Shown here: positions 1-64,000 of the stretch, piece after piece
How positions within the stretch are numbered: the first letter of the stretch is position 1
How the letters are laid out: the number at the start of each line of letters is the position of its first letter
Source: Saccoglossus kowalevskii
Lineage: Eukaryota; Hemichordata; Enteropneusta; Harrimaniidae
DNA length: 64,000 nt
Direction: 5' to 3'
Assembly (NCBI RefSeq): GCF_000003605.2
Contig: NW_003157957.1
Coordinates: 1 to 64,000 of the forward strand
The notes under the pieces: generated by a model
Databases searched by the model: none
Told to the model about the DNA's origin: nothing
Seen by the model: the letters and a program-made list of their open reading frames with translations, nothing else
Position numbers and translations under genes: made by a program

Positions 1-270
1 CTGGGGCTGTTATCTCATTACATTTGATAATACAGATCATGAGTGGTCAGACTAGATGTAACCTGGGACTGTTATCTCATGACATTTGGTAATACAGATC
101 ATGAGTAGTCAGACTAGATGTAACATGGGGCTGTTACCTCATGACATTTGATAATACAGATCATGAGTGGTCATACTAGATGTAACATGGGGCTGTTATC
201 TGATGACATTTGATAATACAGATCATGAGTGGTCAGACGGGATGTAACATGAGGCTGTTATCCCATGACA

Positions 271-290
271 TTTGATCATGAGTGGTCAGA
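271..290 (+). repeat. 53-bp monomer with a 9-bp internal deletion
   Basis: TTTGATCATGAG replaces the normal run in which nine further bases separate GAT from CATGAG. The lost segment lies between two GAT triplets, fitting a slippage deletion. The same deletion occurs near 14,460, 36,531, 39,497, 58,082 and 61,047. Five share context (TCCCATGAC before, CTAG unit after) and belong to one duplicated lineage. The copy at 39,497 sits in a different setting (before an AACCGGGG unit, where relatives have GATAAAACAG) and may be an independent event. Confidence 0.85.
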
Positions 291-611
291 CTAGATGTAA
301 CCAGGGGCTGTTATCTCATGACATTTGATAATACAGATCATGAGTGGTCAGACTAGATGTAACATGGGGCTGTTATCTCTTGACATTTGATAATACAGAT
401 CATGAGTAGTCAGATGGGATGTAACCTGGGGCTGTTATCTCATGACATTTGATAATACAGATCATGAGTAGTCAGATGGGATGTAACCTGGGACTGTTAT
501 CTCATGACATTTGATAATACAGATCATGAGTAGTCAGATGGGATGTAACCTGGGACTGTTATCTCATGACATTTGATAAAACAGATCATGAATAGTCAGA
601 TGGGATGTAAC

Positions 612-673
612 CTGGGGCTGTTATCTCATGACATTTGATAATACAGATCATGAGTGGTCAGACTAGATGTAAC
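612..673 (+). repeat. reference monomer (62 bp, consensus type)
   Basis: This copy serves as the numbering standard: base 1 is the C of CTGGGGCTG and base 62 the C of GATGTAAC. Composition is A18 C10 G15 T19, about 40% GC, with more G than C on the plus strand and no CpG. Common alternatives are bases 1-2 CT, CA, AT or CG; base 6 G or A; base 15 T or C; bases 45-46 GG, AG or AA; and bases 52-55 CTAG, TGGG, CGGG, CGAG, CAAG, ATAG or AGGG. Combinations recur: AG at 45-46 often goes with TGGG at 52-55, and CA at 1-2 often precedes C at 15. The phase is arbitrary; another start would be equally valid. Confidence 0.95.
625..654. other. overlapping dyads inside each monomer
   Basis: In monomer numbering, CTCATGA (14-20) and TCATGAG (37-43) are exact reverse complements with a 16-base loop, and TTATC (10-14) pairs with GATAA (26-30) across 11 bases. 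The two stems overlap, so one DNA or RNA strand could form only one at a time. TCATGA itself is a palindrome and occurs twice per unit. The frequent T-to-C change at base 15 alters one arm of the first pair. Dyads in satellite monomers have been linked to cruciforms and to binding of dimeric proteins, but nothing here shows which, if any, applies. Confidence 0.7.
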
Positions 674-1660
674 CTGGGGCTGTTATCTCATGACATTTGA
701 TAATACAGATCTTGAGTAGTCAGATGGGATGTAACCTGGGACTGTTATCTCATGACATTTGATAATATAGATCATGAGTAGTCAGATGGGATGTAACCTG
801 GGGCTGTTATCTCATGACATTTGATAATACAGATCATGAGTGGTCAGAATAGATGTAACCAGGGGCTGTTATCCCATGACATTTGATAATACAGATCATG
901 AGTAGTCAGACTAGATGTAACCTGGGGCTGTTATCTCATGATATTTGATAATAAAGATCATGAGTGGTCAGATGGGATGTAACCTGGGGCTGTTATCTCA
1001 TGACATTTGATAATACAGATCATGAGTGGTCATACTAGATGTAACATGGGGCTGTTATCTCATGACATTTAATAATACAGATCATGAGTGGTCAGACGGG
1101 ATGTAACATGGGGCTGTTATCCCATGACATTTGATAATACAGATCATGAGTGGTCAGACTAGATGTAACCAGGGGCTGTTATCTCATGACTTTTGATAAT
1201 ACAGATCATGAGTAGTCAGACTAGATGTAACATGGGGTTGTTATCTCATGACATTTGATAATACAGATCATGAGTAGTCAGATGGGATGTAACCTGGGGC
1301 TGTTATCTCATGACATTTGATAATACAGATCATGAGTAGTCAGATGGGATGTAACCTGGGACTGTTATCTTATGACATTTGATAATACAGATCATGAGTA
1401 GTTAGATGGGATGTAACCTGGGGCTGTTATCTCATGACATTTGATAATACAGATCATGAGTGGTCAGACTAGATATAACCTGGGGCTGCTATCTCATGAC
1501 ATTTGATAATACAAATCATGAGTGGTCAGACTAGATGTAACATGGGCTGTTATCTCATGACATTTGATAATACAGATCATGAGTAGTCAGATGGGATGTA
1601 ACCTGGGGCTGTTATCTCATGACATTTGATAATACAGATCTTGAGTAATCAGATGGGATG

Positions 1661-1668
1661 TACCGGTA
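1661..1668. repeat. 6-bp insertion forming TACCGGTA palindrome
   Basis: The unit reads GATGTACCGGTAAACTGGG where the uninserted relative reads GATGTAAACTGGG (for example near 38,664, 49,505, 62,376 and 63,429, all after the same GATCTTGAGTAATCAG context). The six added bases create a perfect 8-bp palindrome and two of the few CpG-containing sites in this lineage. The change recurs at 2,658 and 32,342, so it predates those block duplications. Confidence 0.9.
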
Positions 1669-2429
1669 AACTGGGACTGTTATCTCATGACATTTGATAA
1701 TACAGATCATGAGTAGTCAGATGGGATGTAACCTGGGGCTGTTATCTCATGACATTTGATAATACAGATCATGAGTGGTCAGATGGGATGTAACCTGGGG
1801 CTGTTATCTCATGACATTTGATAATACAGATCATGAGTGGTCAGACTAGATGTAACCAGGGGCTGTTATCCCATGACATTTGATAATACAGATCATGAGT
1901 AGTCAGACTAGATGTAACCTGGGGCTGTTATCTCATGATATTTGATAATAAAGATCATGAGTGGTCAGATGGGATGTAACCTGGGGCTGTTATCTCATGA
2001 CATTTGATAATACAGATCATGAGTGGTCATACTAGATGTAACATGGGGCTGTTATCTCATGACATTTAATAATACAGATCATGAGTGGTCAGACGGGATG
2101 TAACATGGGGCTGTTATCCCATGACATTTGATAATACAGATCATGAGTGGTCAGACTAGATGTAACCAGGGGCTGTTATCTCATGACTTTTGATAATACA
2201 GATCATGAGTAGTCAGACTAGATGTAACATGGGGTTGTTATCTCATGACATTTGATAATACAGATCATGAGTAGTCAGATGGGATGTAACCTGGGGCTGT
2301 TATCTCATGACATTTGATAATACAGATCATGAGTAGTCAGATGGGATGTAACCTGGGACTGTTATCTCATGACATTTGATAATACAGATCATGAGTAGTT
2401 AGATGGGATGTAACCTGGGGCTGTTATCT

Positions 2430-3600
2430 CATGACATTTGATAATACAGATCATGAGTGGTCAGACTAGATATAACCTGGGGCTGTTATCTCATGACATT
2501 TGATAATACAAATCATGAGTGGTCAGACTAGATGTAACATGGGCTGTTATCTCATGACATTTGATAATACAGATCATGAGTAGTCAGATGGGATGTAACC
2601 TGGGGCTGTTATCTCATGACATTTGATAATACAGATCTTGAGTAATCAGATGGGATGTACCGGTAAACTGGGACTGTTATCTCATGACATTTGATAATAC
2701 AGATCATGAGTAGTCAGATGGGATGTAACCTGGGGCTGTTATCTCATGACATTTGATAATACAGATCATGAGTGGTCAGATGGGATGTAACATGGGGCTG
2801 TTATCTCATGACATTTGATAATACAGATCATGAGTGGTCAGACTAGATGTAACCAGGGGCTGTTATCCCATGACATTTGATAATACAGATCATGAGTAGT
2901 CAGACTAGATGTAACCTGGGGCTGTTATCTCATGATATTTGATAATACAGATCATGAGTGGTCAGATGGGATGTAACATGGGGCTGTTATCCCATGACAT
3001 TTGATAATACAGATCATGAGTGGTCAGACTAGATATAACCTGGGGCTGTTATCTCATGACATTTGATAATACAAATCATGAGTGGTCAGACTAGATGTAA
3101 CATGGGCTGTTATCTCATGACATTTGATAATACAGATCATGAGTAGTTAGATGGGATGTAACCTGGGGCTGTTATCTCATGACATTTGATAATACAGATC
3201 TTGAGTAATCAGATGGGATGTAACCTGGGACTGTTATCTCATGACATTTGATAATACAGATCATGAGTAGTCCGATGGGATGTAACCTGGGGCTGTTATC
3301 TCATGACATTTGATAATACAGATCATGAGTGGTCAGATGGGATGTAACCTGGGGTTGTTATCTCATGACATTTGATAATACAGATCATGAGTGGTCAGAC
3401 TAGATGTAACCAGGGGCTGTTATCCCATGACATTTGATAATACAGATCATGAGTAGTCAGACTAGATGTAACCTGGGGCTGTTATCTCATGATATTCGAT
3501 AATACAGATCATGAGTGGTCAGATGGGATGTAACCTGGGGCTGTTATCTCATGACATTTGATAATACAGATCATGAGTGGTCAGATGGGATGTAACCTGG
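2430..3600 (+). repeat. block shared with 51,196-52,360
   Basis: Rare tags keep the same spacing at both places: TCCGATGGG (3,271 and 52,031) and GATATTCGAT (3,491 and 52,251), offset 48,760. To the left the offset becomes 48,766 because this copy has the 6-bp TACCGGTA insertion at 2,658 while the other reads GTAAACTGGG near 51,424. The pair therefore shows the insertion arose after the two lineages separated. GATATTCGAT is also present at 63,700. Confidence 0.87.
2658..2665. repeat. second TACCGGTA insertion copy
   Basis: This is the 997-bp tandem duplicate of the 1,661 insertion, in the same GATCTTGAG/AATCAG monomer and followed by the same GGGACTG unit. Confidence 0.9.
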
Positions 3601-3874
3601 GGCTGTTATCTCATGACATTTGATAATACAGATCATGAGTGGTCAGACTAGATGTAACCTGGGGCTGTTATCTCATGACATTTGATAATACAGATCTTGA
3701 GTAGTCAGATGGGATGTAACCTGGGACTGTTATCTCATGACATTTGATAATACAGATCATGAGTAGTCAGATGGGATGTAACCTGGGGCTGTTATCTCAT
3801 GACATTTGATAATACAGATCATGAGTGTCAAGATGGGATGTAACCTGGGACTGTATCCCATGACATTTGATAAT

Positions 3875-4450: not shown

Positions 4451-4689
4451 ACTAGATGTAACCTGGGGCTGTTATCTCATGACATTTGATAATACAAATC
4501 ATGAGTGGTCAGACTAGATGTAACATGGGGCTGTTATCTCATGACATTTGATAATACAGATCATGAGTAGTCAGATGGGATGTAACCTGGGGCTGTTATC
4601 TCATGACATTTGATAATACAGATCATGAGTAGTCAGATGGGATGTAACCTGGGACTGTTATCTCATGACATTTGATAATACAGATCATG

Positions 4690-11000: not shown

Positions 11001-12200
11001 ATACAGATCATGAGTAGTCAGATGGGATGTAGCCCGGGGCTGATATCCCATGAGATTTGATAATACAGATCATGAGTAGTCAGACTAGATGTAACCTGGG
11101 GCTGTTATCTCATGATATTTGATATTACAGATCATGAGTGGTCAGATGGGATGTAACCTGGGGCTGTTATCTCATGACATTTGATAATACAGATCATGAG
11201 TGGTCAGATGGGAAGTAACCTGGGACTGTTATCTCATGACATTTGATAATACAGATCATGAGTAGTCAGATGGGATGTAACCTGACGCTGTTATCTCATG
11301 ACATTTGATAATACAGATCATGAGTGGTCAGACTAGATGTCACCTGGGGCTGTTATCTCATGACATTTGATAATACAGATCACGAGTGGTCAGACTAGAT
11401 GTAACCAGGGGCTGTTATCCCATGACATTTGATAATACAGATCATGAGTAGTCAGATGGGATGTAACCTGGGACTGTTATCTCATGACATTTGATAATAC
11501 AGATCATGAGTGGTCAGACGAGATGTCACCTGGGGCTGTTATCTCATGACATTTTGATAATACAGATCATGAGTGGTCAGACGGGATGTAACATGGGGCT
11601 GTTATCCCATGACATTTGATAATACAGATCATGAGTGGTCAGACTAGATGTAACCAGGGGCTGTTATCTCATGACATTTGATAATACAGATCATGAGTGG
11701 TCAGACTAGATGTAACATGGGGCTGTTATCTCATGACATTTGATAATACAGATCATGAGTAGTCAGATGGGATGTAACCTGGGGCTGTTATCTCATGACA
11801 TTTGATAATACAGATCATGAGTAGTCAGATGGGATGTAACCTGGGACTGTTATCTCATGACATTTGATAAAACAGATCATGAATAGTCAGATGGGATGTA
11901 ACCTGGGGCTGTTATCTCATGACATTTGATAATACAGATCATGAGTGGTCAGACTAGATGTAACCTGGGGCTGTTATCTCATGACATTTGATAATACAGA
12001 TCATGAGTAGTCAGATGGGATGTAACCTGAGGCTGTTATCTCATGACATTTGATAATACAGATCATGAGTGGTCAGACTAGATGTCACCTGGGGCTGTTA
12101 TCTCATGACATTTGATAATATAGATCATGAGAGGTCAGACTAGATGTAACCAGGGGCTGTTATCCCATGACATTTGATAATACAGATCATGAGTATCAGA
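11000..12200 (+). repeat. block shared with 45.6-46.85 kb
   Basis: Private combinations are common to both: TAGCCCGGGG with CCATGAGATT (11,048 and 45,686) and GGAAGTAACC (11,211 and 45,849), offset 34,638. After a one-base loss at about 45,912 the offset is 34,637, seen at GAGTATCAG (12,191 and 46,828). This is over 1.1 kb of ordered identity across half the window, and closer than either is to the neighbouring cassette at 44.5 kb at these diagnostic bases. Confidence 0.87.
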
Positions 12201-13910: not shown

Positions 13911-14064
13911 AATACAGATCATGAGTGGTCAGACAAGATGTAACCTGGGACTGTTATCTAATGATATTTGATAATACAGATCATGAGTAATCAGACGAGA
14001 TGTAACCAGGGGCTGTTATCCCATGACATTTGATAATACAGATCATGAGTGGTCAGATGGGATG

Positions 14065-14100: not shown

Positions 14101-14189
14101 ATCATGAGTAGTCAGATGGGATGTAACCAGGGGCTGTTATCCCATGACATTTGATAATACAGATCATGAGTAGACAGATGGGATGTAAC

Positions 14190-22580: not shown

Positions 22581-24849
22581 AGATCATGAGTGGTCAGAAT
22601 AGATGTAACCAGGGGCTGTTATCCCATGACATTTGATAATACAGATCATGAGTAGTCAGACTAGATGTAACCTGGGGCTGTTATCTCATGATATTTGATA
22701 ATAAAGATCATGAGTGGTCAGATGGGATGTAACCTGGGGCTGTTATCTCATGACATTTGATAATACAGATCATGAGTGGTCAGATGGGATGTAACCTGGG
22801 GCTGTTATCTCATGACATTTAATAATACAGATCATGAGTGGTCAGACGGGATGTAACCTGGGGCTGTTATCTCATGACATTTGATAATACAGATCATGAG
22901 TAGTCAGATGGGATGCAACCTGGGGCTGTTATCTCATGACATTTGATAATACAGATCATGAGTAGTCAGACTAGATGTAACATGGGACTGTTATCTCATG
23001 ACATTTGATAATACAGATCATGAGTAGTCAGACTAGATGTAACATGGGGCTGTTATCTCATGACATTTGATAATACAAATCATGAGTGGTCAGACTAGAT
23101 GTAACATGGGGCTGTTATCTCATGACATTTGATAATACAGATCATGAGTAATCAGATGGGATGTAACCTGGGGCTGTTATCTCATGACATTTAATAATAC
23201 AGATCATGAGTGGTCAGACAAGATGTAACCTGGGACTGTTATCTAATGATATTTGATAATACAGATCATGAGTAATCAGACGAGATGTAACCAGGGGCTG
23301 TTATCCCATGACATTTGATAATACAGATCATGAGTGGTCAGATGGGATGTAACCTGGGGCTGTTATCTCATGACATTTGATAATACAGATCATGAGTAGT
23401 CAGATGGGATGTAACCCGGGGCTGATATCCCATGACATTTGATAATACAGATCATGAGTAGTCAGACTAGATGTAACCTGGGGCTGTTATCTCATGATAT
23501 TTGATATTACAGATCATGAGTGGTCAGATGGGATGTAACCTGGGGCTGTTATCTCATGACATTTGATAATACAGATCATGAGTGGTCAGATGGGATGTAA
23601 CCTGGGACTGTTATCTCATGACATTTGATAATACAGATCATGAGTAGTCAGATGGGATGTAACCTGACGCTGTTATCTCATGACATTTGATAATACAGAT
23701 CATGAGTGGTCAGACTAGATGTCACCTGGGGCTGTTATCTCATGACATTTGATAATACAGATCACGAGTGGTCAGACTAGATGTAACCAGGGGCTGTTAT
23801 CCCATGACATTTGATAATACAGATCATGAGTAGTCAGATGGGATGTAACCTGGGACTGTTATCTCATGACATTTGATAATACAGATCATGAGTGGTCAGA
23901 CGAGATGTCACCTGGGGCTGTTATCTCATGACATTTTGATAATACAGATCATGAGTGGTCAGACGGGATGTAACATGGGGCTGTTATCCCATGACATTTG
24001 ATAATACAGATCATGAGTGGTCAGACTAGATGTAACCAGGGGCTGTTATCTCATGACATTTGATAATACAGATCATGAGTGGTCAGACTAGATGTAACAT
24101 GGGGCTGTTATCTCATGACATTTGATAATACAGATCATGAGTAGTCAGATGGGATGTAACCTGGGGCTGTTATCTCATGACATTTGATAATACAGATCAT
24201 GAGTAGTCAGATGGGATGTAACCTGGGACTGTTATCTCATGACATTTGATAAAACAGATCATGAATAGTCAGATGGGATGTAACCTGGGGCTGTTATCTC
24301 ATGACATTTGATAATACAGATCATGAGTGGTCAGACTAGATGTAACCTGGGGCTGTTATCTCATGACATTTGATAATACAGATCATGAGTAGTCAGATGG
24401 GATGTAACCTGAGGCTGTTATCTCATGACATTTGATAATACAGATCATGAGTGGTCAGACTAGATGTCACCTGGGGCTGTTATCTCATGACATTTGATAA
24501 TATAGATCATGAGAGGTCAGACTAGATGTAACCAGGGGCTGTTATCCCATGACATTTGATAATACAGATCATGAGTAGTCAGATGGGATGTAACCTGGGG
24601 CTGTTATCTCATGACATTTGATAATACAGATCATGAGTGGTCAAATGGGATGTAACCTGGGGCTGTTATCTCATGACATTTGATAAAACAGATCATGAGT
24701 GGTCAGACTAGATGTAACCGGGGACTGTTATCTCATGACATTTGATAATACAGATCATGAGTAGTCAGACTAGATGTAACATGGGGCTGTTATCTCATGA
24801 CATTTGATAATACAGATCATGAGTAATCAGATGGGATGTAACCTGGGCC

Positions 24850-26753
24850 TGTTATCCCATGACATTTGATAATACAGATCATGAGTGGTCAGACTAGATG
24901 TAACATGGGGCTGTTATCTCATGACATTTGATAATACAGATCATGAGTAGTCAGATGGGATGTAACCTGGGGCTGTTATCTCATGACATTTGATAATACA
25001 GATCATGAGTAGTCAGATGGGATGTAACCTGGGACTGTTATCTCATGACATTTGATAATACAGATCATGAGTAGTCAGACTAGATGCAACATGGGACTGT
25101 TATCTCATGACATTTGATAATACAGATCATGAGTAGTCAGACTAGATGTAACATGGGGCTGTTATCTCATGACATTTGATAATACAAATCATGAGTGGTC
25201 AGACTAGATGTAACATGGGGCTGTTATCTCATGACATTTGATAATACAGATCATGAGTAATCAGACGAGATGTAACCAGGGGCGTTATCCCATGACATTT
25301 GATAATACAGATCATGAGTGGTCAGATGGGATGTAACCTGGGGCTGTTATCTCATGACATTTGATAATACAGATCATGAGTAGTCAGATGGGATGTAACC
25401 TGGGGCTGATATCCCATGACATTTGATAATACAGATCATGAGTGGTCAGATGGGATGTATCCTGGGGCTGTTATCCCATGACATTTGATAATACAGATCA
25501 TGAGTAGTCAGATGGGATGTAACCTGGGGCTGTTATCTCATGACATTTGATAATACAGATCATGAGTAGTCAGATGGGATGTAACCTGGGGCTGTTATCT
25601 CATTACATTTGATAATACAGATCATGAGTGGTCAGACTAGATGTAACATGAGGCTGTTATCTTATGCATTTGATAATACAGATCATGAGTAATCAGATGG
25701 GAGTAACCTGGGGCTGTTATCCCATGACATTTGATAATACAGATCATGAGTAGTCAGATGGGATGTAACCTGGGACTGTTATCTCAGGACATTTGATAAT
25801 ACAGATCATGAGTAGTCAGACTAGATGTAACATGGGACTGTTATCTCATGACATTTGATAATACAGATCATGAGTAGTCAGACTAGATGTTGTTACAGTA
25901 ACATGGGGCTGTTATCTCATGACATTTGATAATACAGATCATGAGTGGTCAGAAAGGATGTAACATGGGGCTGTTATCCCATGACATTTGATAATACAGA
26001 TCATGAGTGGTCAGACTAGATGTAACATGGGGCTGTTATCTCATGACATTTGATAATACAGATCATGAGTAGTCAGATGGGATGTAACCTGGGGCTGTTA
26101 TCTCATGACATTTGATAATACAGATCATGAGTAGTCAGATGGGATGTAACCTGGGACTGTTATCTCATGACATTTGATAATACAGATCATGAGTAGTCAG
26201 ACTAGATGTAACATGGGACTGTTATCGAATGACATTTGATAATACAGATCATGAGTAGTCAGACTAGATGTAACATGGGGCTGTTATCTCATGACATTTG
26301 ATAATACAAATCATGAGTGGTCAGACTAGATGTAACATGGGGCTGTTATCTCATGACATTTGATAATACAGATTATGAGTAATCAGACGAGATGTAACCA
26401 GGGGCGTTATCCCATGACATTTGATAATACAGATCATGAGTGGTCAGATGGGATGTAACCTGGGGCTGTTATCTCATGACATTTGATAATACAGATCATG
26501 AGTAGTCAGATGGGATGTAACCTGGGGCTGATATCCCATGACATTTGATAATACAGATCATGAGTGGTCAGATGGGATGTATCCTGGGGCTGTTATCCCA
26601 TGACATTTGATAATACAGATCATGAGTAGTCAGATGGGATGTAACCTGGGGCTGTTATCTCATGACATTTGATAATACAGATCATGAGTAGTCAGATGGG
26701 ATGTAACCTGGGGCTGTTATCTCATTACATTTGATAATACAGATCATGAGTAG
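24850..26753 (+). repeat. 780-bp segment repeated at 1,122-bp spacing
   Basis: The run about 24,850-25,632 recurs at about 25,972-26,753. GGGGCGTT lies at 25,279 and 26,401. In between is a segment with a 60-bp unit (TTATGCATTT), a one-base-short unit (GATGGGAGTAACC), a CTCAGGAC unit and the insertion at 25,891. The copies differ at TATCGAATGA (26,223) and at GATGCAAC (25,084). Confidence 0.78.
25891..25903. repeat. 9-bp insertion forming TGTTAC-A-GTAACA hairpin
   Basis: After GATGT the unit continues TGTTACAGTAACATGG where relatives have AACATGG. The added bases include TGTTAC, the exact reverse complement of the GTAACA that follows, giving 6-bp arms with a one-base loop. This is the only copy in the window. 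It fits a brief template switch onto the opposite strand. Confidence 0.9.
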
Positions 26754-40584: not shown

Positions 40585-41696
40585 GGCTGTTATCTCATTA
40601 CATTTGATAATACAGATCATGAGTGGTCAGACTAGATGTAACATGGGGCTGTTATCTCATGACATTTGATAATACAGATCATGAGTGGTCAGACTAGATG
40701 TAACATGGGACTGTTATCGAATGACATTTGATAATACAGATCATGAGTAGTCAGACTAGATGTAACATGGGGCTGTTATCTCATGACATTTGATAATACA
40801 AATCATGAGTGGTCAGACTAGATGTAACATGGGGCTGTTATCTCATGACATTTGATAATACAGATTATGAGTAATCAGACGAGATGTAACCAGGGGCGTT
40901 ATCCCATGACATTTGATAATACAGATCATGAGTGGTCAGATGGGATGTAACCTGGGGCTGTTATCTCATGACATTTGATAATACAGATCATGAGTAGTCA
41001 GATGGGATGTAACCTGGGGCTGATATCCCATGACATTTGATAATACAGATCATGAGTGGTCAGATGGGATGTATCCTGGGGCTGTTATCCCATGACATTT
41101 GATAATACAGATCATGAGTAGTCAGATGGGATGTAACCTGGGGCTGTTATCTCATGACATTTGATAATACAGATCATGAGTAGTCAGATGGGATGTAACC
41201 TGGGGCTGTTATCTCATTACATTTGATAATACAGATCATGAGTAGTCAGATGGGATGTAACCTGGGGCTGTTATCTCATGACATTTGATAATACAGATCA
41301 TGAGTGGTCAGACTAGATGTCACCTGGGGCTGTTATCTCATGACATTTGATAATAAAGATCACAAGTGGTCAGACTAGATGTAACCAGGGGCTGTTATCC
41401 CATGACATTTGATAATACAGATCATGAGTAGTCAGATGGGATGTAACCTGGGGCTGTTATCTCATGACATTTGATAATACAGATCATGAGTGGTCAGACT
41501 AGATGTCACCTGGGGCTGTTATCTCATGACATTTTGATAATACAGATTATGAGTGGTCAGACGAGATGTAACCTGGGGCTGTTATCTCATGACATTTGAT
41601 AATACAGATCATGAGTAATCATATGGGATGTAACCTGGGGCTGTTATCTCATGACATTTGATAATACAGATCATGAGTAGTCAGATGGGATGTAAC

Positions 41697-42629
41697 CTGG
41701 GGCTGTTATCTCATGACATTTGATAATACAGATCATGAGTAGTCAGATGGGATGTAACCAGGGGCTGTTATCTCATGACATTTTGATAATACAGATCACG
41801 AGTGGTCAGACGAGATGTAACCTGGGGCTGTTATCTCATGATATTTGATAATACAGATCATGAGTAATCAGATGGGATGTAACCTGGGGCTGTTATCTCA
41901 TGACATTTAATAATACAGATCATGAGTGGTCAGACAAGATGTAACCTGGGACTGTTATCTCATGATATTTGATAATACAGATCATGAGTAGTCAGATGGG
42001 ATGTAACCTGGGGCTGTTATCTCATGACATTTGATAATACAGATCATGAGTAGTCAGATGGGATGTAACCAGGGGCTGTTATCTCATGACATTTTGATAA
42101 TACAGATCACGAGTGGTCAGACAAGATGTAACCTGGGGCTGTTATCTCATGATATTTGATAATACAGATCATGAGTAATCAGATGGGATGTAACCTCGGG
42201 CTGTTATCTCATGACATTTAATAATACAGATCATGAGTGGTCAGACAAGATGTAACCTGGGACTGTTATCTCATGATATTTGATAATACAGATCATGAGT
42301 AGTCAGATGGGATGTAACCTGGGGCTGTTATCTCATGACATTTGATAATACAGATCATGAGTAGTCAGATGGGATGTAACCAGGGGCTGTTATCTCATGA
42401 CATTTTGATAATACAGATCACGAGTGGTCAGACGAGATGTAACCTGGGGCTGTTATCTCATGATATTTGATAATACAGATCATGAGTAATCAGATGGGAT
42501 GTAACCTGGGGCTGTTATCTCATGACATTTAATAATACAGATCATGAGTGGTCAGACAAGATGTAACCTGGGACTGTTATCTCATGATATTTGATAATAC
42601 AGATCATGAGTAGTCAGATGGGATGTAAC
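41697..42629 (+). repeat. 5-monomer unit in three tandem copies (311 bp each)
   Basis: Units run 41,697-42,007, 42,008-42,318 and 42,319-42,629; each is 5 x 62 + 1 owing to a 63-bp CATTTTGAT monomer. TTTTGATAAT with CACGAG lies at 41,781, 42,092 and 42,403. Copies differ at few bases, such as CAAG in place of CGAG near 42,121 and CCTCGGG near 42,194, both in the middle unit. The same unit exists once at 5.5-5.8 kb in similar flanks, so this is a local amplification by two units. Confidence 0.92.
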
Positions 42630-52068: not shown

Positions 52069-54155
52069 TTTGATAATACAGATCATGAGTGGTCAGATGG
52101 GATGTAACCTGGGGTTGTTATCTCATGACATTTGATAATACAGATCATGAGTGGTCAGACTAGATGTAACCAGGGGCTGTTATCCCATGACATTTGATAA
52201 TACAGATCATGAGTAGTCAGACTAGATGTAACCTGGGGCTGTTATCTCATGATATTCGATAATACAGATCATGAGTGGTCAGATGGGATGTAACCTGGGG
52301 CTGTTATCTCATGACATTTGATAATACAGATCATGAGTGGTCAGATGGGATGTAACCTGGGACTGTTATCTCATGACATTTGATAATACAGATCATGAGT
52401 GGTCAGACTAGATGTCACCTGGGGCTGTTATCTCATGACATTTGATAATAAAGATCACGAGTGGTCAGACTAGATGTAACCAGGGGCTGTTATCCCATGA
52501 CATTTGATAATACAGATCATGAGTGGTCAGATGGGATGTAACCTGGGGCTGTTATCTCATGACATTTGATAATACAGATTATGAGTAATCATATGGGATG
52601 TAACCTGGGGCTGTTATCTCATGACATTTGATAATACAGATCATGAGTAGTCAGATGGGATGTAACCTGTGGCTGTTATCTCATGACATTTGATAATACA
52701 GATTATGAGTGGTCAGATGGGATGTAACCTGGGACTGTTATCTCATGATATTTGATAATACAGATCATGAGTGGTCAGACTAGATGTAACCAGGGGCTGT
52801 TATCCCATGACATTTGATAATACAGATCATGAGTAGTCAGATGGGATGTAACCTGGGGCTGTTATCTCATGACATTTGATAATACAGATCATGAGTGGTC
52901 AGACTAGATGTCACCTGGGGCTGTTATCTCATGACATTTGATAATAAAGATCACGAGTGGTCAGACTAGATGTAACCAGGGGCTGTTATCCCATGACATT
53001 TGATAATACAGATCATGAGTAGTCAGATGGGATGTAACCTGGGGCTGTTATCTCATGACATTTGATAATACAGATCATGAGTGGTCAGATGGGATGTAAC
53101 CTGGGGCTGTTATCTCATGACATTTGATAATACAAATCATGAGTGGTCAGACTAGATGTAACCAGGGGCTGTTATCCCATGACATTTGATAATACAGATC
53201 ATGAGTGGTCAGACTAGATGTCACCTGGGGCTGTTATCTCATGACATTTTGATAATACAGATCATGAGTGGTCAGACGAGATGTAACCTGGGGCTGTTAT
53301 CTCATGACATTTGATAATACAGATCATGAGTAGTCAGATGGGATGTAACCTGGGGCTGTTATCTCATGACATTTGATAATACAGATCATGAGTGGTCAGA
53401 CTAGATGTCACCTGGGGCTGTTATCTCATGACATTTTGATAATACAGATCATGAGTGGTCAGACGAGATGTAACCTGGGGCTGTTATCTCATGACATTTG
53501 ATAATACAGATCATGAGTAGTCAGATGGGATGTAACCAGGGGCTGTTATCTCATGACATTTTGATAATACAGATCATGAGTGGTCAGACGAGATGTAACC
53601 TGGGGCTGTTATCTCATGATATTTGATAATACAGATCATGAGTAATCAGATGGGATGTAACCTGGGGCTGTTGTCTCATGACATTTAATAATACAGATCA
53701 TGAGTGGTCAGACAAGATGTAACCTGGGACTGTTATCTCATGATATTTGATAATACAGATCATGAGTAATCAGACGAGATGTAACCAGGGGCTGTTATCC
53801 CATGACATTTGATAATACAGATCATGAGTGGTCAGATGGGATGTAACCTGGGGCTGTTATCTCATGACATTTGATAATACAGATCATGAGTAGTCAGATG
53901 GGAAGTAACCTGGGGCTGATATCCCATGACATTTGATAATACAGATCATGAGTGGTCAGATGGGATGTATCCTGGGGTTGTTATCTCATGACATTTGATA
54001 ATACAGATCATGAGTAGTCAGATGGGATGTAACCAGGGGCTGTTATCTCATGACATTTGATAATACAGATCATGAGTAGTCAGATGGGATGTAACCTGGG
54101 GCTGTTATCTCATGACATTTGATAATACAGATCATGAGTGGTCAGATGGGATGTA

Positions 54156-56998
54156 ACCTGGGGCTGTTATCCCATGACATTTGATAATACAGATCATGAG
54201 TAGACAGATGGGATGTAACCTGCGGCTGTTATCTCATTACATTTGATAATACAGATCATGAGTGGTCAGACTAGATGTAACATGGGGCTGTTATCTCATG
54301 CATTTGATAATACAGATCATGAGTAATCAGATGGAATGTAACCTGGGACTGTTATCTCATGACATTTGGTAATACAGATCATGAGTAGTCAGACTAGATG
54401 TAACATGGGGCTGTTACCTCATGACATTTGATAATACAGATCATGAGTGGTCATACTAGATGTAACATGGGGCTGTTATCTCATGACATTTGATAATACA
54501 GATCATGAGTGGTCAGACGGGATGTAACATGGGGCTGTTATCCCATGACATTTGATAATACAGATCATGAGTGGTCAGACTAGATGTAACCAGGGGCTGT
54601 TATCTCATGACATTTGATAATACAGATCATGAGTGGTCAGACTAGATGTAACATGGGGCTGTTATCTCATGACATTTGATAATACAGATCATGAGTAGTC
54701 AGATGGGATGTAACCTGGGGCTGTTATCTCATGACATTTGATAATACAGATCATGAGTAGTCAGATGGGATGTAACCTGGGACTGTTATCTCATGACATT
54801 TGATAAAACAGATCATGAATAGTCAGATGGGATGTAACCTGGGGCTGTTATCTCATGACATTTGATAATACAGATCATGAGTGGTCAGACTAGATGTAAC
54901 CTGGGGCTGTTATCTCATGACATTTGATAATACAGATCTTGAGTAGTCAGATGGGATGTAACCTGGGACTGTTATCTCATGACATTTGATAATACAGATC
55001 ATGAGTAGTCAGATGGGATGTAACCTGGGGCTGTTATCTCATGACATTTGATAATACAGATCATGAGTGGTCAGAATAGATGTAACCAGGGGCTGTTATC
55101 CCATGACATTTGATAATACAGATCATGAGTAGTCAGACTAGATGTAACCTGGGGCTGTTATCTCATGATATTTGATAATACAGATCATGAGTGGTCAGAT
55201 GGGATGTAACCTGGGGCTGTTATCTCATGACATTTGATAATACAGATCATGAGTGGTCATACTAGATGTAACATGGGGCTGTTATCTCATGACATTTAAT
55301 AATACAGATCATGAGTAGTCAGATGGGATGTAACCTGGGGCTGTTATCTCATGACATTTGATAATACAGATCATGAGTAGTCAGATGGGATGTAACCTGG
55401 GACTGTTATCTCATGACATTTGATAAAACAGATCATGAATAGTCAGATGGGATGTAACCTGGGGCTGTTATCTCATGACATTTGATAATACAGATCATGA
55501 GTGGTCAGACTAGATGTAACATGGGGCTGTTATTTCATGACATTTGATAATACAGATCATGAGTGGTCAGATGGGATGTAACCTGGGGCTGTATCCATGA
55601 CATTGATAATACAGATCATGAGTAGACAGATGGGATGTAACTGCGGCTGTTATCTCATTACATTTGATAATACAGATCATGAGTGGTCAGACTAGATGTA
55701 ACATGGGGCTGTTATCTCATGCATTTGATAATACAGATCATGAGTAATCAGATGGAATGTAACCTGGGACTGTTATCTCATGACATTTGGTAATACAGAT
55801 CATGAGTAGTCAGACTAGATGTAACATGGGGCTGTTACCTCATGACATTTGATAATACAGATCATGAGTGGTCATACTAGATGTAACATGGGGCTGTTAT
55901 CTCATGACATTTGATAATACAGATCATGAGTGGTCAGACGGGATGTAACATGGGGCTGTTATCCCATGACATTTGATAATACAGATCTTGAGTGGTCAGA
56001 CTAGATGTAACCAGGGGCTGTTATCTCATGACATTTGATAATACAGATCATGAGTGGTCAGACTAGATGTAACATGGGGCTGTTATCTCATGACATTTGA
56101 TAATACAGATCATGAGTAGTCAGATGGGATGTAACCTGGGGCTGTTATCTCATGACATTTGATAATACAGATCATGAGTAGTCAGATGGGATGTAACCTG
56201 GGACTGTTATCTCATGACATTTGATAAAACAGATCATGAATAGTCAGATGGGATGTAACCTGGGGCTGTTATCTCATAACATTTGATAATACAGATCATG
56301 AGTGGTCAGACTAGATGTAACCTGGGGCTGTTATCTCATGACATTTGATAATACAGATCTTGAGTAGTCAGATGGGATGTAACCTGGGACTGTTATCTCA
56401 TGACATTTGATAATACAGATCATGAGTAGTCAGATGGGATGTAACCTGGGGCTGTTATCTCATGACATTTGATAATACAGATCATGAGTGGTCAGAATAG
56501 ATGTAACCAGGGGCTGTTATCCCATGACATTTGATAATACAGATCATGAGTAGTCAGACTAGATGTAACCTGGGGCTGTTATCTCATGATATTTGATAAT
56601 ACAGATCATGAGTGGTCAGATGGGATGTAACCTGGGGCTGTTATCTCATGACATTTGATAATACAGATCATGAGTGGTCATACTAGATGTAACATGGGGC
56701 TGTTATCTCATGACATTTAATAATACAGATCATGAGTAGTCAGATGGGATGTAACCTGGGGCTGTTATCTCATGACATTTGATAATACAGATCATGAGTA
56801 GTCAGATGGGATGTAACCTGGGACTGTTATCTCATGACATTTGATAAAACAGATCATGAATAGTCAGATGGGATGTAACCTGGGGCTGTTATCTCATGAC
56901 ATTTGATAATACAGATCATGAGTGGTCAGACTAGATGTAACATGGGGCTGTTATTTCATGACATTTGATAATACAGATCATGAGTGGTCAGATGGGAT
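54156..56998 (+). repeat. tandem duplication, 1,421-bp (23-monomer) period
   Basis: Units run about 54,156-55,577 and 55,578-56,998. GATAAAACA (54,802/56,223) and TACAGATCTT (54,931/56,352) repeat at 1,421 bp; the TAGACAGATG/CTGCGG tag (54,201/55,623) repeats at 1,422 before a one-base loss. TTATTTCATG marks the right end of both units. The first monomers of the second unit contain the loss cluster near 55,590. Confidence 0.87.
55588..55642 (+). other. cluster of one-base losses, possible consensus error
   Basis: GTATCCATGACATTGATAA followed by GATGTAACTGCGG lacks one T, one C, one T and one C relative to the sister unit at 54,166-54,225. All four fall in runs of two or three equal bases. 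This is the error type expected of long-read consensus, and it lies near the junction of the 1,421-bp duplication, where read placement would be hard. Confidence 0.6.
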
Positions 56999-58945
56999 GT
57001 TACCTGGGACTGTTATCTCATGACATTTGATAATACAGATCATGAGTAGTCAGATGGGATGTAACCTGGGGCTGTTATCTCATGACATTTGATAATACAG
57101 ATCATGAGTGGTCAGACTAGATGTCACCTGGGGCTGTTATCTCATGACATTTTGATAATACAGATCATGAGTGGTCAGACGAGATGTAACCTGGGGCTGT
57201 TATCTCATGACATTTGATAATACAGATCATGAGTAGTCAGATGGGATGTAACCAGGGGCTGTTATCTCATGACATTTTGATAATACAGATCATGAGTGGT
57301 CAGACGAGATGTAACCTGGGGCTGTTATCTCATGATATTTGATAATACAGAACATGAGTAATCAGATGGGATGTAACCTGGGGCTGTTGTCTCATGACAT
57401 TTAATAATACAGATCATGAGTGGTCAGACAAGATGTAACCTGGGACTGTTATCTCATGATATTTGATAATACAGATCATGAGTAATCAGACGAGATGTAA
57501 CCAGGGGCTGTTATCCCATGACATTTGATAATACAGATCATGAGTGGTCAGATGGGATGTAACCTGGGGCTGTTATCTCATGACATTTGATAATACAGAT
57601 CATGAGTAGTCAGATGGGATGTAACCTGGGGCTGATATCCCATGACATTTGATAATACAGATCATGAGTGGTCAGATGGGATGTATCCTGGGGTTGTTAT
57701 CTCATGACATTTGATAATACAGATCATGAGTAGTCAGATGGGATGTAACCAGGGGCTGTTATCCCATGACATTTGATAATACAGATCATGAGTAGACAGA
57801 TGGGATGTAACCTGGGGCTGTTATCTCATTACATTTGATAATACAGATCATGAGTGGTCAGACTAGATGTAACCTGGGACTGTTATCTCATGACATTTGG
57901 TAATACAGATCATGAGTAGTCAGACTAGATGTAACATGGGGCTGTTACCTCATGACATTTGATAATACAGATCATGAGTGGTCATACTAGATGTAACATG
58001 GGGCTGTTATCTGATGACATTTGATAATACAGATCATGAGTGGTCAGACGGGATGTAACATGAGGCTGTTATCCCATGACATTTGATCATGAGTGGTCAG
58101 ACTAGATGTAACCAGGGGCTGTTATCTCATGACATTTGATAATACAGATCATGAGTGGTCAGACTAGATGTAACATGGGGCTGTTATCTCATGACATTTG
58201 ATAATACAGATCATGAGTAGTCAGATGGGATGTAACCTGGGGCTGTTATCTCATGACATTTGATAATACAGATCATGAGTAGTCAGATGGGATGTAACCT
58301 GGGACTGTTATCTCATGACATTTGATAAAACAGATCATGAATAGTCAGATGGGATGTAACCTGGGGCTGTTATCTCATGACATTTGATAATACAGATCAT
58401 GAGTGTCAGACTAGATGTAACTGGGGCTGTATCTCATGACATTTGATAATACAGATCTGAGTAGTCAGATGGGATGTAACCTGGGACTGTTATCTCATGA
58501 CATTTGATAATACAGATCATGAGTAGTCAGATGGGATGTAACCTGGGGCTGTTATCTCATGACATTTGATAATACAGATCATGAGTGGTCAGAATAGATG
58601 TAACCAGGGGCTGTTATCCCATGACATTTGATAATACAGATCATGAGTAGTCAGACTAGATGTAACCTGGGGCTGTTATCTCATGATATTTGATAATAAA
58701 GATCATGAGTGGTCAGATGGGATGTAACCTGGGGCTGTTATCTCATGACATTTGATAATACAGATCATGAGTGGTCAGATGGGATGTAACCTGGGGCTGT
58801 TATCTCATGACATTTAATAATACAGATCATGAGTGGTCAGACGGGATGTAACATGGGGCTGTTATCCCATGACATTTGATAATACAGATCATGAGTGGTC
58901 AGACTAGATGTAACCAGGGGCTGTTATCTCATGACTTTTGATAAT
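56821..58945 (+). repeat. block repeated at 59,787-61,915 (48-monomer spacing)
   Basis: GTTACCTGGG (56,999/59,965), CAGAACATGAG (57,348/60,314), CTCATTAC opening (57,812/60,777), the 53-bp unit (58,082/61,047), AATAAAGATC (58,695/61,666) and GACTTTTGAT (58,933/61,904) all recur at 2,965-2,971 bp. Small drifts match one-base gains and losses near 60,387, 60,479 and 58,404-58,450. Identity is interrupted at 58,306-58,600 against 61,271-61,565, where the second copy has GTCACC and CATTTTGAT monomers instead. Confidence 0.85.
58404..58452 (+). other. cluster of one-base losses, possible consensus error
   Basis: GAGTGTCAG, GTAACTGGGG, CTGTATCTC and GATCTGAG each lack one base of a doubled pair (GG, CC, TT, TT) compared with sister monomers, for example near 54,880-54,940. 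Four such losses in under 50 bp are exceptional for this array and look like unpolished base calls. Confidence 0.6.
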
Positions 58946-59449: not shown

Positions 59450-60180
59450 TGAGTAGTCAGATGGGATGTAACCTGGGGCTGTTATCTCATGACATTTGAT
59501 AATACAGATCATGAGTGGTCAGACTAGATGTAACATGGGGCTGTTATTTCATGACATTTGATAATACAGATCATGAGTGGTCAGATGGGATGTTACCTGG
59601 GACTGTTATCTCATGACATTTGATAATACAGATCATGAGTAGTCAGATGGGATGTAACCTGGGGCTGTTATCTCATGACATTTGATAATACAGATCATGA
59701 GTGGTCAGACTAGATGTCACCTGGGGCTGTTATCTCATGACATTTTGATAATACAGATCATGAGTGGTCAGACAAGATGTAACCTGGGGCTGTTATCTCA
59801 TGACATTTGATAAAACAGATCATGAATAGTCAGATGGGATGTAACCTGGGGCTGTTATCTCATGACATTTGATAATACAGATCATGAGTGGTCAGACTAG
59901 ATGTAACATGGGGCTGTTATTTCATGACATTTGATAATACAGATCATGAGTGGTCAGATGGGATGTTACCTGGGACTGTTATCTCATGACATTTGATAAT
60001 ACAGATCATGAGTAGTCAGATGGGATGTAACCTGGGGCTGTTATCTCATGACATTTGATAATACAGATCATGAGTGGTCAGACTAGATGTCACCTGGGGC
60101 TGTTATCTCATGACATTTTGATAATACAGATCATGAGTGGTCAGACGAGATGTAACCTGGGGCTGTTATCTCATGACATT
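59450..60180 (+). repeat. tandem duplication, 373-bp (6-monomer) period
   Basis: TTATTTCATG (59,544/59,917) and GTCACCTGGG (59,716/60,089) repeat at 373 bp; the extra base over 6 x 62 comes from a CATTTTGAT monomer. Copies differ at CAAG (59,772) against CGAG (60,145). The duplication sits at the left border of the second 2,965-bp block and may be linked to the same exchange. Confidence 0.86.
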
Positions 60181-61639
60181 TGATAATACAGATCATGAGT
60201 AGTCAGATGGGATGTAACCAGGGGCTGTTATCTCATGACATTTTGATAATACAGATCATGAGTGGTCAGACGAGATGTAACCTGGGGCTGTTATCTCATG
60301 ATATTTGATAATACAGAACATGAGTAATCAGATGGGATGTAACCTGGGGCTGTTGTCTCATGACATTTAATAATACAGATCATGAGTCGGTCAGACAAGA
60401 TGTAACCTGGGACTGTTATCTCATGATATTTGATAATACAGATCATGAGTAATCAGACGAGATGTAACCAGGGGCTGTTCCCATGACATTTGATAATACA
60501 GATCATGAGTGGTCAGATGGGATGTAACCTGGGGCTGTTATCTCATGACATTTGATAATACAGATCATGAGTAGTCAGATGGGATGTAACCTGGGGCTGA
60601 TATCCCATGACATTTGATAATACAGATCATGAGTGGTCAGATGGGATGTATCCTGGGGTTGTTATCTCATGACATTTGATAATACAGATCATGAGTAGTC
60701 AGATGGGATGTAACCAGGGGCTGTTATCCCATGACATTTGATAATACAGATCATGAGTAGACAGATGGGATGTAACCTGGGGCTGTTATCTCATTACATT
60801 TGATAATACAGATCATGAGTGGTCAGACTAGATGTAACCTGGGACTGTTATCTCATGACATTTGGTAATACAGATCATGAATAGTCAGACTAGATGTAAC
60901 ATGGGGCTGTTACCTCATGACATTTGATAATACAGATCATGAGTGGTCATACTAGATGTAACATGGGGCTGTTATCTGATGACATTTGATAATACAGATC
61001 ATGAGTGGTCAGACGGGATGTAACATGGGGCTGTTATCCCATGACATTTGATCATGAGTGGTCAGACTAGATGTAACCAGGGGCTGTTATCTCATGACAT
61101 TTGATAATACAGATCATGAGTGGTCAGACTAGATGTAACATGGGGCTGTTATCTCATGACATTTGATAATACAGATCATGAGTAGTCAGATGGGATGTAA
61201 CCTGGGGCTGTTATCTCATGACATTTGATAATACAGATCATGAGTAGTCAGATGGGATGTAACCTGGGGCTGTTATCTCATGACATTTGATAATACAGAT
61301 CATGAGTGGTCAGACTAGATGTCACCTGGGGCTGTTATCTCATGACATTTTGATAATACAGATCATGAGTGGTCAGACGAGATGTAACCTGGGGCTGTTA
61401 TCTCATGACATTTGATAATACAGATCATGAGTAGTCAGATGGGATGTAACCAGGGGCTGTTATCTCATGACATTTTGATAATACAGATCATGAGTGGTCA
61501 GACGAGATGTAACCTGGGGCTGTTATCTCATGACATTTGATAATACAGATCATGAGTAATCAGATGGGATGTAACCAGGGGCTGTTATCCCATGACATTT
61601 GATAATACAGATCATGAGTAGTCAGACTAGATGTAACCT

Positions 61640-63700
61640 GGGGCTGTTATCTCATGATATTTGATAATAAAGATCATGAGTGGTCAGATGGGATGTAACC
61701 TGGGGCTGTTGTCTCATGACATTTGATAATACAGATCATGAGTGGTCAGATGGGATGTAACCTGGGGCTGTTATCTCATGACATTTAATAATACAGATCA
61801 TGAGTGGTCAGACGGGATGTAACATGGGGCTGTTATCCCATGACATTTGATAATACAGATCATGAGTGGTCAGACTAGATGTAACCAGGGGCTGTTATCT
61901 CATGACTTTTGATAATACAGATCATGAGTAGTCAGACTAGATGTAACATGGGGTTGTTATCTCATGACATTTGATAATACAGATCATGAGTAGTCAGATG
62001 GGATGTAACCTGGGGCTGTTATCTCATGACATTTGATAATACAGATCATGAGTAGTCAGATGGGATGTAACCTGGGACTGTTATCTCATGACATTTGATA
62101 ATACAGATCATGAGTAGTTAGATGGGATGTAACCTGGGGCTGTTATCTCATGACATTTGATAATACAGATCATGAGTGGTCAGACTAGATATAACCTGGG
62201 GCTGTTATCTCATGACATTTGATAATACAAATCATGAGTGGTCAGACTAGATGTAACATGGGCTGTTATCTCATGACATTTGATAATACAGATCATGAGT
62301 AGTCAGATGGGATGTAACCTGGGGCTGTTATCTCATGACATTTGATAATACAGATCTTGAGTAATCAGATGGGATGTAAACTGGGACTGTTATCTCATGA
62401 CATTTGATAATACAGATCATGAGTAGTCAGATGGGATGTAACCTGGGGCTGTTATCTCATGACATTTGATAATACAGATCATGAGTGGTCAGATGGGATG
62501 TAACCTGGGGCTGTTATCTCATGACATTTGATAATACAGATCATGAGTGGTCAGACTAGATGTAACCAGGGGCTGTTATCCCATGACATTTGATAATACA
62601 GATCATGAGTAGTCAGACTAGATGTAACCTGGGGCTGTAATCTCATGATATTTGATAATACAGATCATGAGTGGTCAGAATAGATGTAACCAGGGGCTGT
62701 TATCCCATGACATTTGATAATACAGATCACGAGTAGTCAGACTAGATGTAACCTGGGGCTGTTATCTCATGATATTTGATAATAAAGATCATGAGTGGTC
62801 AGATGGGATGTAACCTGGGGCTGTTATCTCATGACATTTGATAATACAGATCATGAGTGGTCAGATGGGATGTAACCTGGGGCTGTTATCTCATGACATT
62901 TAATAATACAGATCATGAGTGGTCAGACGGGATGTAACATGGGGCTGTTATCCCATGACATTTGATAATACAGATCATGAGTGGTCAGACTAGATGTAAC
63001 CAGGGGCTGTTATCTCATGACTTTTGATAATACAGATCATGAGTAGTCAGATGGGATGTAACCTGGGGCTGTTATCTCATGACATTTGATAATACAGATC
63101 ATGAGTAGTCAGATGGGATGTAACCTGGGACTGTTATCTCATGACATTTGATAATACAGATCATGAGTAGTTAGATGGGATGTAACCTGGGGCTGTTATC
63201 TCATGACATTTGATAATACAGATCATGAGTGGTCACACTAGATATAACCTGGGGCTGTTATCTCATGACATTTGATAATACAAATCATGAGTGGTCAGAC
63301 TAGATGTAACATGGGCTGTTATCTCATGACATTTGATAATACAGATCATGAGTAGTCAGATGGGATGTAACCTGGGGCTGTTATCTCATGACATTTGATA
63401 ATACAGATCTTGAGTAATCAGATGGGATGTAAACTGGGACTGTTATCTCATGACATTTGATAATACAGATCATGAGTAGTCAGATGGGATGTAACCTGGG
63501 GCTGTTATCTCATGACATTTGATAATACAGATCATGAGTGGTCAGATGGGATGTAACCTGGGGCTGTTATCTCATGACATTTGATAATACAGATCATGAG
63601 TGGTCAGACTAGATGTAACCAGGGGCTGTTATCCCATGACATTTGATAATACAGATCATGAGTAGTCAGACTAGATGTAACCTGGGGCTGTTATCTCATG
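61640..63700 (+). repeat. tandem duplication, 1,115/1,053-bp period
   Basis: AATAAAGATC (61,666/62,781) and GACTTTTGAT (61,904/63,019) repeat at 1,115 bp (18 monomers). GTAGTTAGAT (62,114/63,168) and GTAAACTGGG (62,376/63,429) repeat at about 1,054 bp, so one monomer was lost in the second unit just after the GACTTTTGAT tag. The unit is the same module that is repeated four times at 35.7-39.4 kb. Confidence 0.85.
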
Positions 63701-64000
63701 ATATTCGATAATACAGATCATGAGTGGTCAGATGGGATGTAACCTGGGGCTGTTATCTCATGACATTTGATAATACAGATCATGAGTGGTCAGATGGGAT
63801 GTAACCTGGGACTGTTATCTCATGACATTTGATAATACATATCATGAGTAGTCAGATGGGATGTAACCTGGGGCTGTTATCTCATGACATTTGATAATAC
63901 AGATCATGAGTGGTCAGACTAGATGTCACCTGGGGCTGTTATCTCATGACATTTGATAATAAAGATCACAAGTGGTCAGACTAGATGTAACCAGGGGCTG

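What the first reader, a model, noticed from the sequence alone, without database searches (positions are those of the whole stretch)
1..64000. A 64 kb pure array of an unrecognised 62-bp satellite
The unit, its phase and its single orientation are directly visible for about 1,030 copies with no transposon, gene or spacer. Unbroken purity over 64 kb is unusual, since large satellite arrays commonly carry transposon insertions. I do not recognise the monomer, so it may be undescribed. The link to centromere or heterochromatin is inference from the general behaviour of such arrays.
Basis: partly seen in the sequence, partly recalled or inferred. Interest (0 to 1): 0.75.

Follow-up and report, generated by a model that had tools for sequence, protein, structure and literature searches.

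The report
Single-locus 62-bp animal satellite array
This stretch is a pure block of over a thousand copies of one 62-letter DNA repeat, found on a single piece of the readable part of an animal genome that holds many unrelated blocks of the same kind, and the order of its copies suggests it is kept uniform by copying chunks about a thousand letters long between distant places rather than between neighbours.

Summary
Window 1-64000 is one uninterrupted, single-orientation array of a 62-bp unit (1033 copies), and its contig (G000:C4709, 65,100 bp) is satellite to its end. Sequence novelty is open: no real hit in what I could search, but Dfam and Repbase were not available. The centromere reading is not supported: the readable 572-Mb genome holds 990 near-matches of the core, and this contig alone holds 990; much of the genome reads N. 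Short-unit arrays are common here: 21 of 46 readable sampled contigs are arrays over the part read, 20 unrelated families. The new information is unit order. Neighbours are no more alike than random pairs; exact neighbour identity is 1 of 1032 against 16.5 expected; yet 363 of 1029 five-unit words recur, at distances up to 60 kb. After equal optimisation, simulations with ~1-kb local duplication plus non-local copying of ~1-kb tracts fit better (misfit 11.5) than tandem exchange alone (47, 64), though an earlier single-setting check was equivocal. A new member of a known kind, with a clear block-shuffled order.

The parts
1..64000 (+). uninterrupted head-to-tail array of the 62-bp satellite; continues to the contig end at 65,100
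612..673 (+). one typical 62-bp unit (CTGGGGCTG...GATGTAAC phase)
625..654 (+). core of a unit: CTCATGA...TCATGAG inverted repeat around a 16-bp spacer; TCATGA occurs 1741 times in the window
249..301 (+). 53-bp short unit (9-bp internal deletion); the same kind at 14438, 36509, 39475, 58060 and 61025
25832..25902 (+). longest unit, 71 bp (9 extra bases): the largest interruption of the array
11215..12195 (+). longest exact repeat block (981 bp); its copy is at 23597-24577, 12.4 kb away
23597..24577 (+). copy of the block at 11215-12195
33888..34835 (+). 948-bp exact block; copy at 54079-55026, 20.2 kb away
54079..55026 (+). copy of the block at 33888-34835
1..2977 (+). block of about 48 units; related blocks at 36509 (about 38 units) and about 60777-63743 (48 units)
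   Evidence: starts as printed; ends worked out by hand from unit starts, approximate
54220..58930 (+). local duplication with a 23-unit (1421-bp) step; end approximate
41635..41758 (+). the only pair of identical neighbouring units in the window

Best explanation
The window is a satellite array confined to one contig of the readable genome of a non-vertebrate animal, one of many unrelated short-unit arrays in that genome. Shown: one contig only in readable sequence; neighbours no more alike than random pairs; exact blocks of about 0.2-1 kb shared at short and long distances in the window. Inferred: the array is kept up by two recombination modes, local tandem duplication/deletion in steps of roughly 9-25 units (0.5-1.5 kb) and frequent non-local copying of tracts of about 15 units (about 1 kb) from anywhere in the array. 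Plausible routes are gene conversion between misaligned sisters, template switching during break-induced replication, or excision and reinsertion of circles; I cannot separate these. No host function need be assumed; a selected role is not excluded.
For: Single contig: the 30-bp core has 470 exact matches and 990 with up to 3 mismatches in the readable genome, and the contig alone holds 470 and 990. Many arrays: 21 array contigs sampled, 20 unrelated families; the 62-mer matches none while the positive control rang. Order: mean identity at lag 1 is 0.918 against 0.919 for shuffles, z -1.1; exact lag-1 identity 1 of 1032 against 16.5 expected, minimum 4 in 2000 shuffles; repeated 5-unit words 363 of 1029 against 0 in 200 shuffles. 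Sharing in runs of 3 or more units is absent at lags 1-4, peaks at lags 15-24 (11.4 per 1000 pair positions) and is 1.6-4.5 in broad lag bins from 36 to 1000 units. No exact repeat of 1000 bp. Models: after equal optimisation (111 candidates each, fixed scale) misfit was 11.5 for local duplication plus non-local copying, 47.0 and 64.1 for tandem exchange with broad or narrow offsets. In random-prior runs the best 20 of 3062 simulations all included non-local copying, and 47 of the best 50, although tandem-only schemes had 2298 of the 3062 draws. In five other arrays (89-210 units each) lag-1 mean identity also lies within 0.006 of the random level.
Against: The winning model has two more parameters. 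At one single setting each, 7 of 15 statistics fell outside its replicate range, against 6 and 5 for the rivals. Even the refined fit makes the longest run too long (residual +0.26; rivals +0.45 and +0.50). The simulations use infinite alleles and an array of 1300 units; true array size is unknown, and copying alone was not optimised separately. In the first half of the window the lag-1 depletion (0 against 7.1) is matched by some shuffles (minimum 0); in the second it is not (1 against 10.1, minimum 3). In 20-lag bins sharing is uneven (0 to 13.8). In the other five arrays exact lag-1 identity is not clearly depleted (9 against 6.7, 1 against 1.3, 27 against 27, 6 against 4.2, 1 against 2.5), and repeated 4-unit words are few in two of them (2 of 129, 2 of 86; the others 16 of 207, 14 of 125, 52 of 88), so block reuse may not be general. 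32 of 60 sampled contig starts read N, so copies in withheld stretches are not excluded. One assembly and no reads, so assembly error is not directly excluded.
Confidence: 0.6

Rival explanations
1. Classical satellite maintained by unequal sister-chromatid exchange alone (Smith model), with a broad range of offsets and strong mutation.
For: Local duplications with steps of 15-24 units are visible. With broad (log-uniform) offsets this model also removes lag-1 identity and shares blocks at long range. At one fixed setting it missed 6 of 15 statistics, and narrow offsets 5, against 7 for the mixed model.
Against: It makes shared blocks too long: in 24 replicates near its best random-prior setting the longest run was 38-207 units, median 110, against 15 observed; the best single draw gave 33. 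Misfit 47.0 against 11.5 after equal optimisation. Best rank 42 of 3062.
Confidence: 0.2
2. Centromeric or pericentromeric heterochromatin satellite.
For: A long, pure, single-orientation, gene-free array with GC near 40%. Some species have chromosome-specific centromere arrays (general knowledge).
Against: Found on one contig of the readable genome only, with many unrelated arrays beside it. No CENP-B box or relaxed form. Dyads of the consensus are not in significant excess (count p 0.14-0.72) and the strands do not fold unusually well (z -1.10 to +0.47). The unit is 62 bp, not nucleosome length, though three units make 186 bp.
Confidence: 0.08
3. Intronic or genic minisatellite-like arrays: the CpG-poor arrays of this genome lie in methylated gene bodies.
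For: CpG observed/expected is 0.07 here. 11 of 21 sampled arrays are below 0.3, against 3 of 21 non-array stretches (two partly repetitive starts at 0.38 and 0.47, the 5S array and the mitochondrial contig were left out of both groups). Mosaic gene-body methylation is usual in invertebrates (general knowledge).
Against: No flank is assembled, so the location is unknown. A 62-bp unit can lack CpG by chance. Array-specific methylation in heterochromatin would look the same.
Confidence: 0.25
4. Assembly artefact: unit order is scrambled by the assembler or by polishing.
For: The array is a stand-alone contig whose length, 65,100 bp, is 1050 x 62 (arithmetic); no read data are available.
Against: No exact repeat of 1000 bp in the window, so long accurate reads could resolve it. 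122 single-copy unit types are spread over the array, 4-14 in each 4-kb bin. No N. Words of 60-200 bases from one contig end do not recur within 2 kb of the other. Shared blocks are longer than short-read polishing would be expected to make (inference).
Confidence: 0.07

Closest known systems
Locus-specific satellite / long minisatellite arrays of animals (general class, from general knowledge)
   Same: short unit, head-to-tail, pure, many unrelated families per genome
   Different: 65 kb on one contig, unit variants shuffled as blocks over the whole array
Higher-order repeat (HOR) alpha satellite of primates
   Same: units diverge within a block while blocks recur nearly exactly; PMC8122249 (passages seen) describes this pattern
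   Different: no fixed HOR period here: local steps vary (15-24 units most often) and long-range copies are out of register; 62 bp instead of about 171 bp
Meloidogyne chitwoodi/M. fallax satellites in simple and HOR arrays (PMC3694981, passages seen)
   Same: monomers shuffled between array forms
   Different: units of about 170 bp with a CENP-B-box-like motif; no CENP-B box here
Switchgrass centromere arrays with 792-1131-bp HOR units (PMC4053949, passages seen)
   Same: duplicated blocks of about 1 kb
   Different: there tandem HORs of a centromere repeat; here irregular, one contig
Other 62-bp repeats: C744 of the same genome; 62-bp repeats of Schistosoma mansoni mitochondrial DNA (PMC3254664, passage seen); a 62-bp satellite unit in bovine ROR2 (PMC13185825, passages seen)
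   Same: unit length
   Different: C744 is unrelated in sequence; the other two have other contexts, and their sequences were not compared

Membership tests
satellite DNA (long tandem array) | head-to-tail repeat over tens of kb, non-coding | tested here: met
satellite DNA (long tandem array) | heterochromatic chromatin state | not testable with these tools
   no chromatin data
higher-order repeat array | multi-unit block recurs with near identity while its units differ | tested here: met
   exact blocks to 981 bp; neighbours 91.8% identical
higher-order repeat array | one regular HOR period in tandem | tested here: not met
   (lags 1-499): best lag identity 0.924 at lag 359 against 0.919 random (sd 0.0009), exact pairs at most 5.1% at any lag; offsets vary
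centromere satellite | present on many or all chromosomes in the species (usual but not universal) | tested here: not met
   one contig in readable sequence; withheld stretches not covered
centromere satellite | CENP-A/CENH3 binding | not testable with these tools
   no chromatin data
CENP-B-dependent alpha-type satellite | CENP-B box | tested here: not met
   0 on both strands, strict and relaxed (motif typed from recall)
non-B-DNA (dyad-rich) centromere satellite | excess of short dyad symmetries | tested here: not met
   count p 0.14-0.72 against 1000 shuffles of the consensus; fold z -1.10 to +0.47
named satellite in Dfam/Repbase | sequence match to an entry | not testable with these tools
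   libraries not held; sequence pieces in paper texts gave only one 14-mer match and 12-mer matches in six papers

The most novel reading that the evidence does not exclude
This animal genome carries a very large library of unrelated, mostly single-locus short-unit satellites, many of them CpG-poor, and a genome-wide recombination mode copies tracts of about 1 kb non-locally within each array, so that neighbouring units are not the closest relatives: concerted evolution dominated by conversion or template switching rather than by unequal crossing-over. (Probability put slightly lower on recheck, because repeated 4-unit words are few in two of the five other arrays and single-locus status was tested for this array only.)
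Probability: 0.25. Interest if true: 0.6.

Novelty: new member of a known kind. Interest (0 to 1): 0.38.

Why it matters
Whether tandem arrays are homogenised mainly by unequal crossing-over or by conversion-like copying is an old question. An array with no exact repeat of 1000 bp in its sequenced window, in a genome with many arrays of unrelated sequence, may let the two be separated by unit order, with independent repeats of the test array by array.

Tried and rejected
Vertebrate origin: I first took CpG 0.07 as a vertebrate signature. Rejected: 16 of 21 non-array stretches have CpG observed/expected of 0.5 or more (the rest are 0.48, 0.46 and three below 0.3), and the mitochondrial COX1 on C4830 uses ATA at positions that I recall as conserved isoleucine and AAA at recalled conserved lysine. 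The phylum stays open; a hemichordate-like guess rests on recall only.

Regular superperiod near 22 kb: suggested by repeat distances clustered at 20-25 kb; rejected as regular because offsets between 300 and 410 units vary and are not collinear. Trimer HOR: lag 3 has 25 exact pairs against 16.5 expected in shuffles, lags 4-12 have 8-23, no clear trimer. Bacterial, phage or plasmid origin: phages gave one chance hit covering 2% (E 0.9); nothing in plasmids, or of exact core words in viral contigs or prokaryote contigs. Rfam on 1-10000: none. Literature for a 62-bp satellite: four papers listed; passages looked for in three, one of which held no '62 bp'; the fourth seen as a listing only; none; two; passages; one, already seen; none; none is this sequence by what I could read. 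Sequence pieces in paper texts: one paper with a 14-mer; six papers with 12-mers. Amphioxus 'mirage' minisatellites: a recalled lead, listing of two papers only, not pursued; eleven papers listed, passages of three seen. One search found no paper holding all six terms; paper not held.

Not completed: whether the arrays of C2373 and C744 are also single-locus, and the 18S rRNA search; all unanswered. One search was a script that crashed, rerun. One search translated the wrong stretch.
Full report
Observation. The whole window is one tandem array. TRF gives a single row, 1-64000, period 62, 1033.1 copies, 91% matches, 0% indels. A cyclic alignment to the consensus gives 1034 segments, the last a 9-bp partial; 926 are exactly 62 bp, and mean identity to consensus is 94.5% over 1032 units (first and last left out). 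The longest unit is 71 bp, so nothing larger than 9 extra bases interrupts the array. No ORF of 60 aa or more exists. GC and GC skew are level throughout. The 30-bp core (up to 3 mismatches) occurs 973 times on + in the window and never on - in the contig.

Surroundings. The window is contig C4709 of a 572,110,611-bp genome with 4830 contigs. That contig is 65,100 bp long and its last 1100 bp are the same satellite, so no flank is assembled. Words of 60-200 bases from one end do not recur within 2 kb of the other, so nothing suggests a circle. Searching the genome for the core gave 470 exact matches and 990 with up to 3 mismatches, none in reverse; the contig alone holds 470 and 990. So within readable sequence the core is confined to this contig. 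The limit is that withheld stretches read N: 32 of 60 contig starts in one sample did.

Genome context. I asked for pieces of 86 other contigs: 6, 20, and 60, of which 40 were drawn at random from all contigs and 20 from C4600-C4830. Forty read N throughout the piece, leaving 46. In the 60-contig sample 28 were readable, 12 of them tandem arrays over at least 90% of 400 bp: 9 of 19 readable in the random part, 3 of 9 in the other; two more were partly repetitive. In one search, 14 of 20 were readable: 6 satellites, one array of 5S rRNA-like genes (C3800), one mitochondrial contig with a 141-bp repeat, 6 not repetitive. In one search, 3 of 6 were arrays, 2 were N and 1 was ordinary. The 21 satellite contigs fall into 20 unrelated families (first 400 bp compared, E 1e-3); only C3000 and C4705 share one; none matches the 62-mer, while a positive control did. 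Unit lengths run from about 19 to 75 bp. Only the pieces named were read, not whole contigs, and withheld sequence cannot be read, so these fractions are not unbiased estimates for the genome.

Order of unit variants. There are 255 distinct aligned units (263 counting insertions), 122 of them seen once. Mean identity between neighbours is 0.918, the same as for shuffled pairs (0.919; z -1.1). Exact identity of neighbours is found once in 1032 pairs against 16.5 expected, with a minimum of 4 in 2000 shuffles; by halves it is 0 against 7.1 (shuffle minimum 0) and 1 against 10.1 (minimum 3). At lag 2 it is also 1; at lag 3 it is 25. Yet order is far from random: 363 of 1029 five-unit words recur, 0 in 200 shuffles. 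Exact blocks reach 981 bp and none reaches 1000 bp; pairs lie up to 59.7 kb apart. Runs of 3 or more shared units are absent at lags 1-4, densest at lags of 15-24 units (11.4 per 1000 pair positions), and 1.6-4.5 in broad bins from 36 to 1000 units; in 20-lag bins they are uneven, 0 to 13.8. The array is therefore a mosaic of blocks reused at many distances, not a regular higher-order repeat: among lags 1-499 none raises mean identity above 0.924, and long offsets vary without collinearity.

Mechanism. I simulated arrays of unit types under four schemes: tandem exchange with narrow offsets, with broad offsets, non-local copying of tracts, and a mixture of narrow exchange and copying (first look; random settings). 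In 3062 simulations with random settings (2298 of them tandem-only) the best 20 all contained non-local copying, as did 47 of the best 50; the best tandem-only run ranked 42nd. A check with 24 replicates at one setting each was less clear: 7 of 15 statistics lay outside the replicate range for the mixture, 6 and 5 for broad and narrow exchange. After the same optimisation effort for each (111 candidates, four replicates each, fixed scale), misfit was 11.5 for the mixture, 47.0 for broad and 64.1 for narrow exchange. The best mixture has copied tracts of about 15.5 units (about 1 kb) in 74% of events, and local steps of about 9-25 units. The mixture has two more parameters, copying alone was not optimised separately, and the mixture still makes the longest block too long. 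I take non-local copying as likely, not proven. The molecular route (conversion between misaligned sisters, break-induced replication with template switching, or circle reinsertion) is inference.

Is it general in this genome? Evidence is mixed. In five other arrays (89-210 units each) neighbours again have a mean identity within 0.006 of random pairs. Exact unit pairs are in excess at lags of 17 and 29 units in C744 (9 and 10 against 1.3), 17 in C3000 (9 against 2.5) and 31 and 35 in C2373 (12 and 14 against 6.7), which is about 0.75-1.8 kb; I did not test these for significance. But exact neighbour identity is not clearly depleted in any of the five, and repeated four-unit words are few in two of them (2 of 129 and 2 of 86; the others 16 of 207, 14 of 125, 52 of 88).

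Chromatin and composition. CpG observed/expected is 0.07. Eleven of 21 sampled arrays fall below 0.3 against 3 of 21 non-array stretches (two partly repetitive starts, the 5S array and the mitochondrial contig were in neither group), which would fit methylation of some arrays; it is not evidence of a vertebrate. There is no CENP-B box, no significant dyad excess and no unusual single-strand folding.

Host. COX1 lies on C4830 (17,037 bp) with TGA codons inside the frame, and frames that I recognise by eye as ND1 and COX2 lie beside it, so that contig is mitochondrial. Codon positions suggest ATA as isoleucine and AAA as lysine (judged against conserved residues that I recall). This points to a non-vertebrate animal; I do not name a phylum with confidence.

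Known or new. No match beyond chance was found in phages or plasmids, nor exact core words in viral or prokaryotic contigs, nor the sequence in open papers beyond short words. Dfam and Repbase were not available, so sequence novelty is undecided. As a kind of thing it is a satellite array, which is known; its restriction to one contig and its block-shuffled order are what a specialist could use.

Noticed in passing
G000 contigs C3000, C4708, C4710, C1200, C3600, C4400, C4600, C4705, C4715, C396, C485, C744, C1829, C2373, C2653, C4157, C4390, C4430, C4648, C4695, C4763 (loci L035-L114): Each piece read is a tandem array; 20 unrelated families with units of about 19-75 bp in 21 contigs. The genome seems to hold a large satellite library.
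   Followed up: partly
L050 (G000:C3800:1-600): Tandem array of 216-bp units with 5S rRNA-like genes (88.5 and 67.5 bits) that differ from each other, so some are probably degenerate.
   Followed up: partly
L120 and L057 (G000:C4830, 17,037 bp): Mitochondrial genome with COX1 on the opposite strand to frames read by eye as ND1 and COX2, and a 141-bp repeat filling the 600 bp read at the contig start.
   Followed up: partly
L119 (G000:C744:1-8000): A second 62-bp array, unrelated in sequence, also CpG-poor (0.06), with an excess of identical units at lags of 17 and 29.
   Followed up: partly
L047 (G000:C3200:1-600): Repeated tRNA-like stretches (read by eye as proline-type, not tested) in an otherwise non-array piece.
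   Followed up: no
21 arrays and 21 non-array stretches: CpG observed/expected is below 0.3 in 11 of 21 arrays but 3 of 21 other stretches, which may mark methylated arrays.
   Followed up: partly
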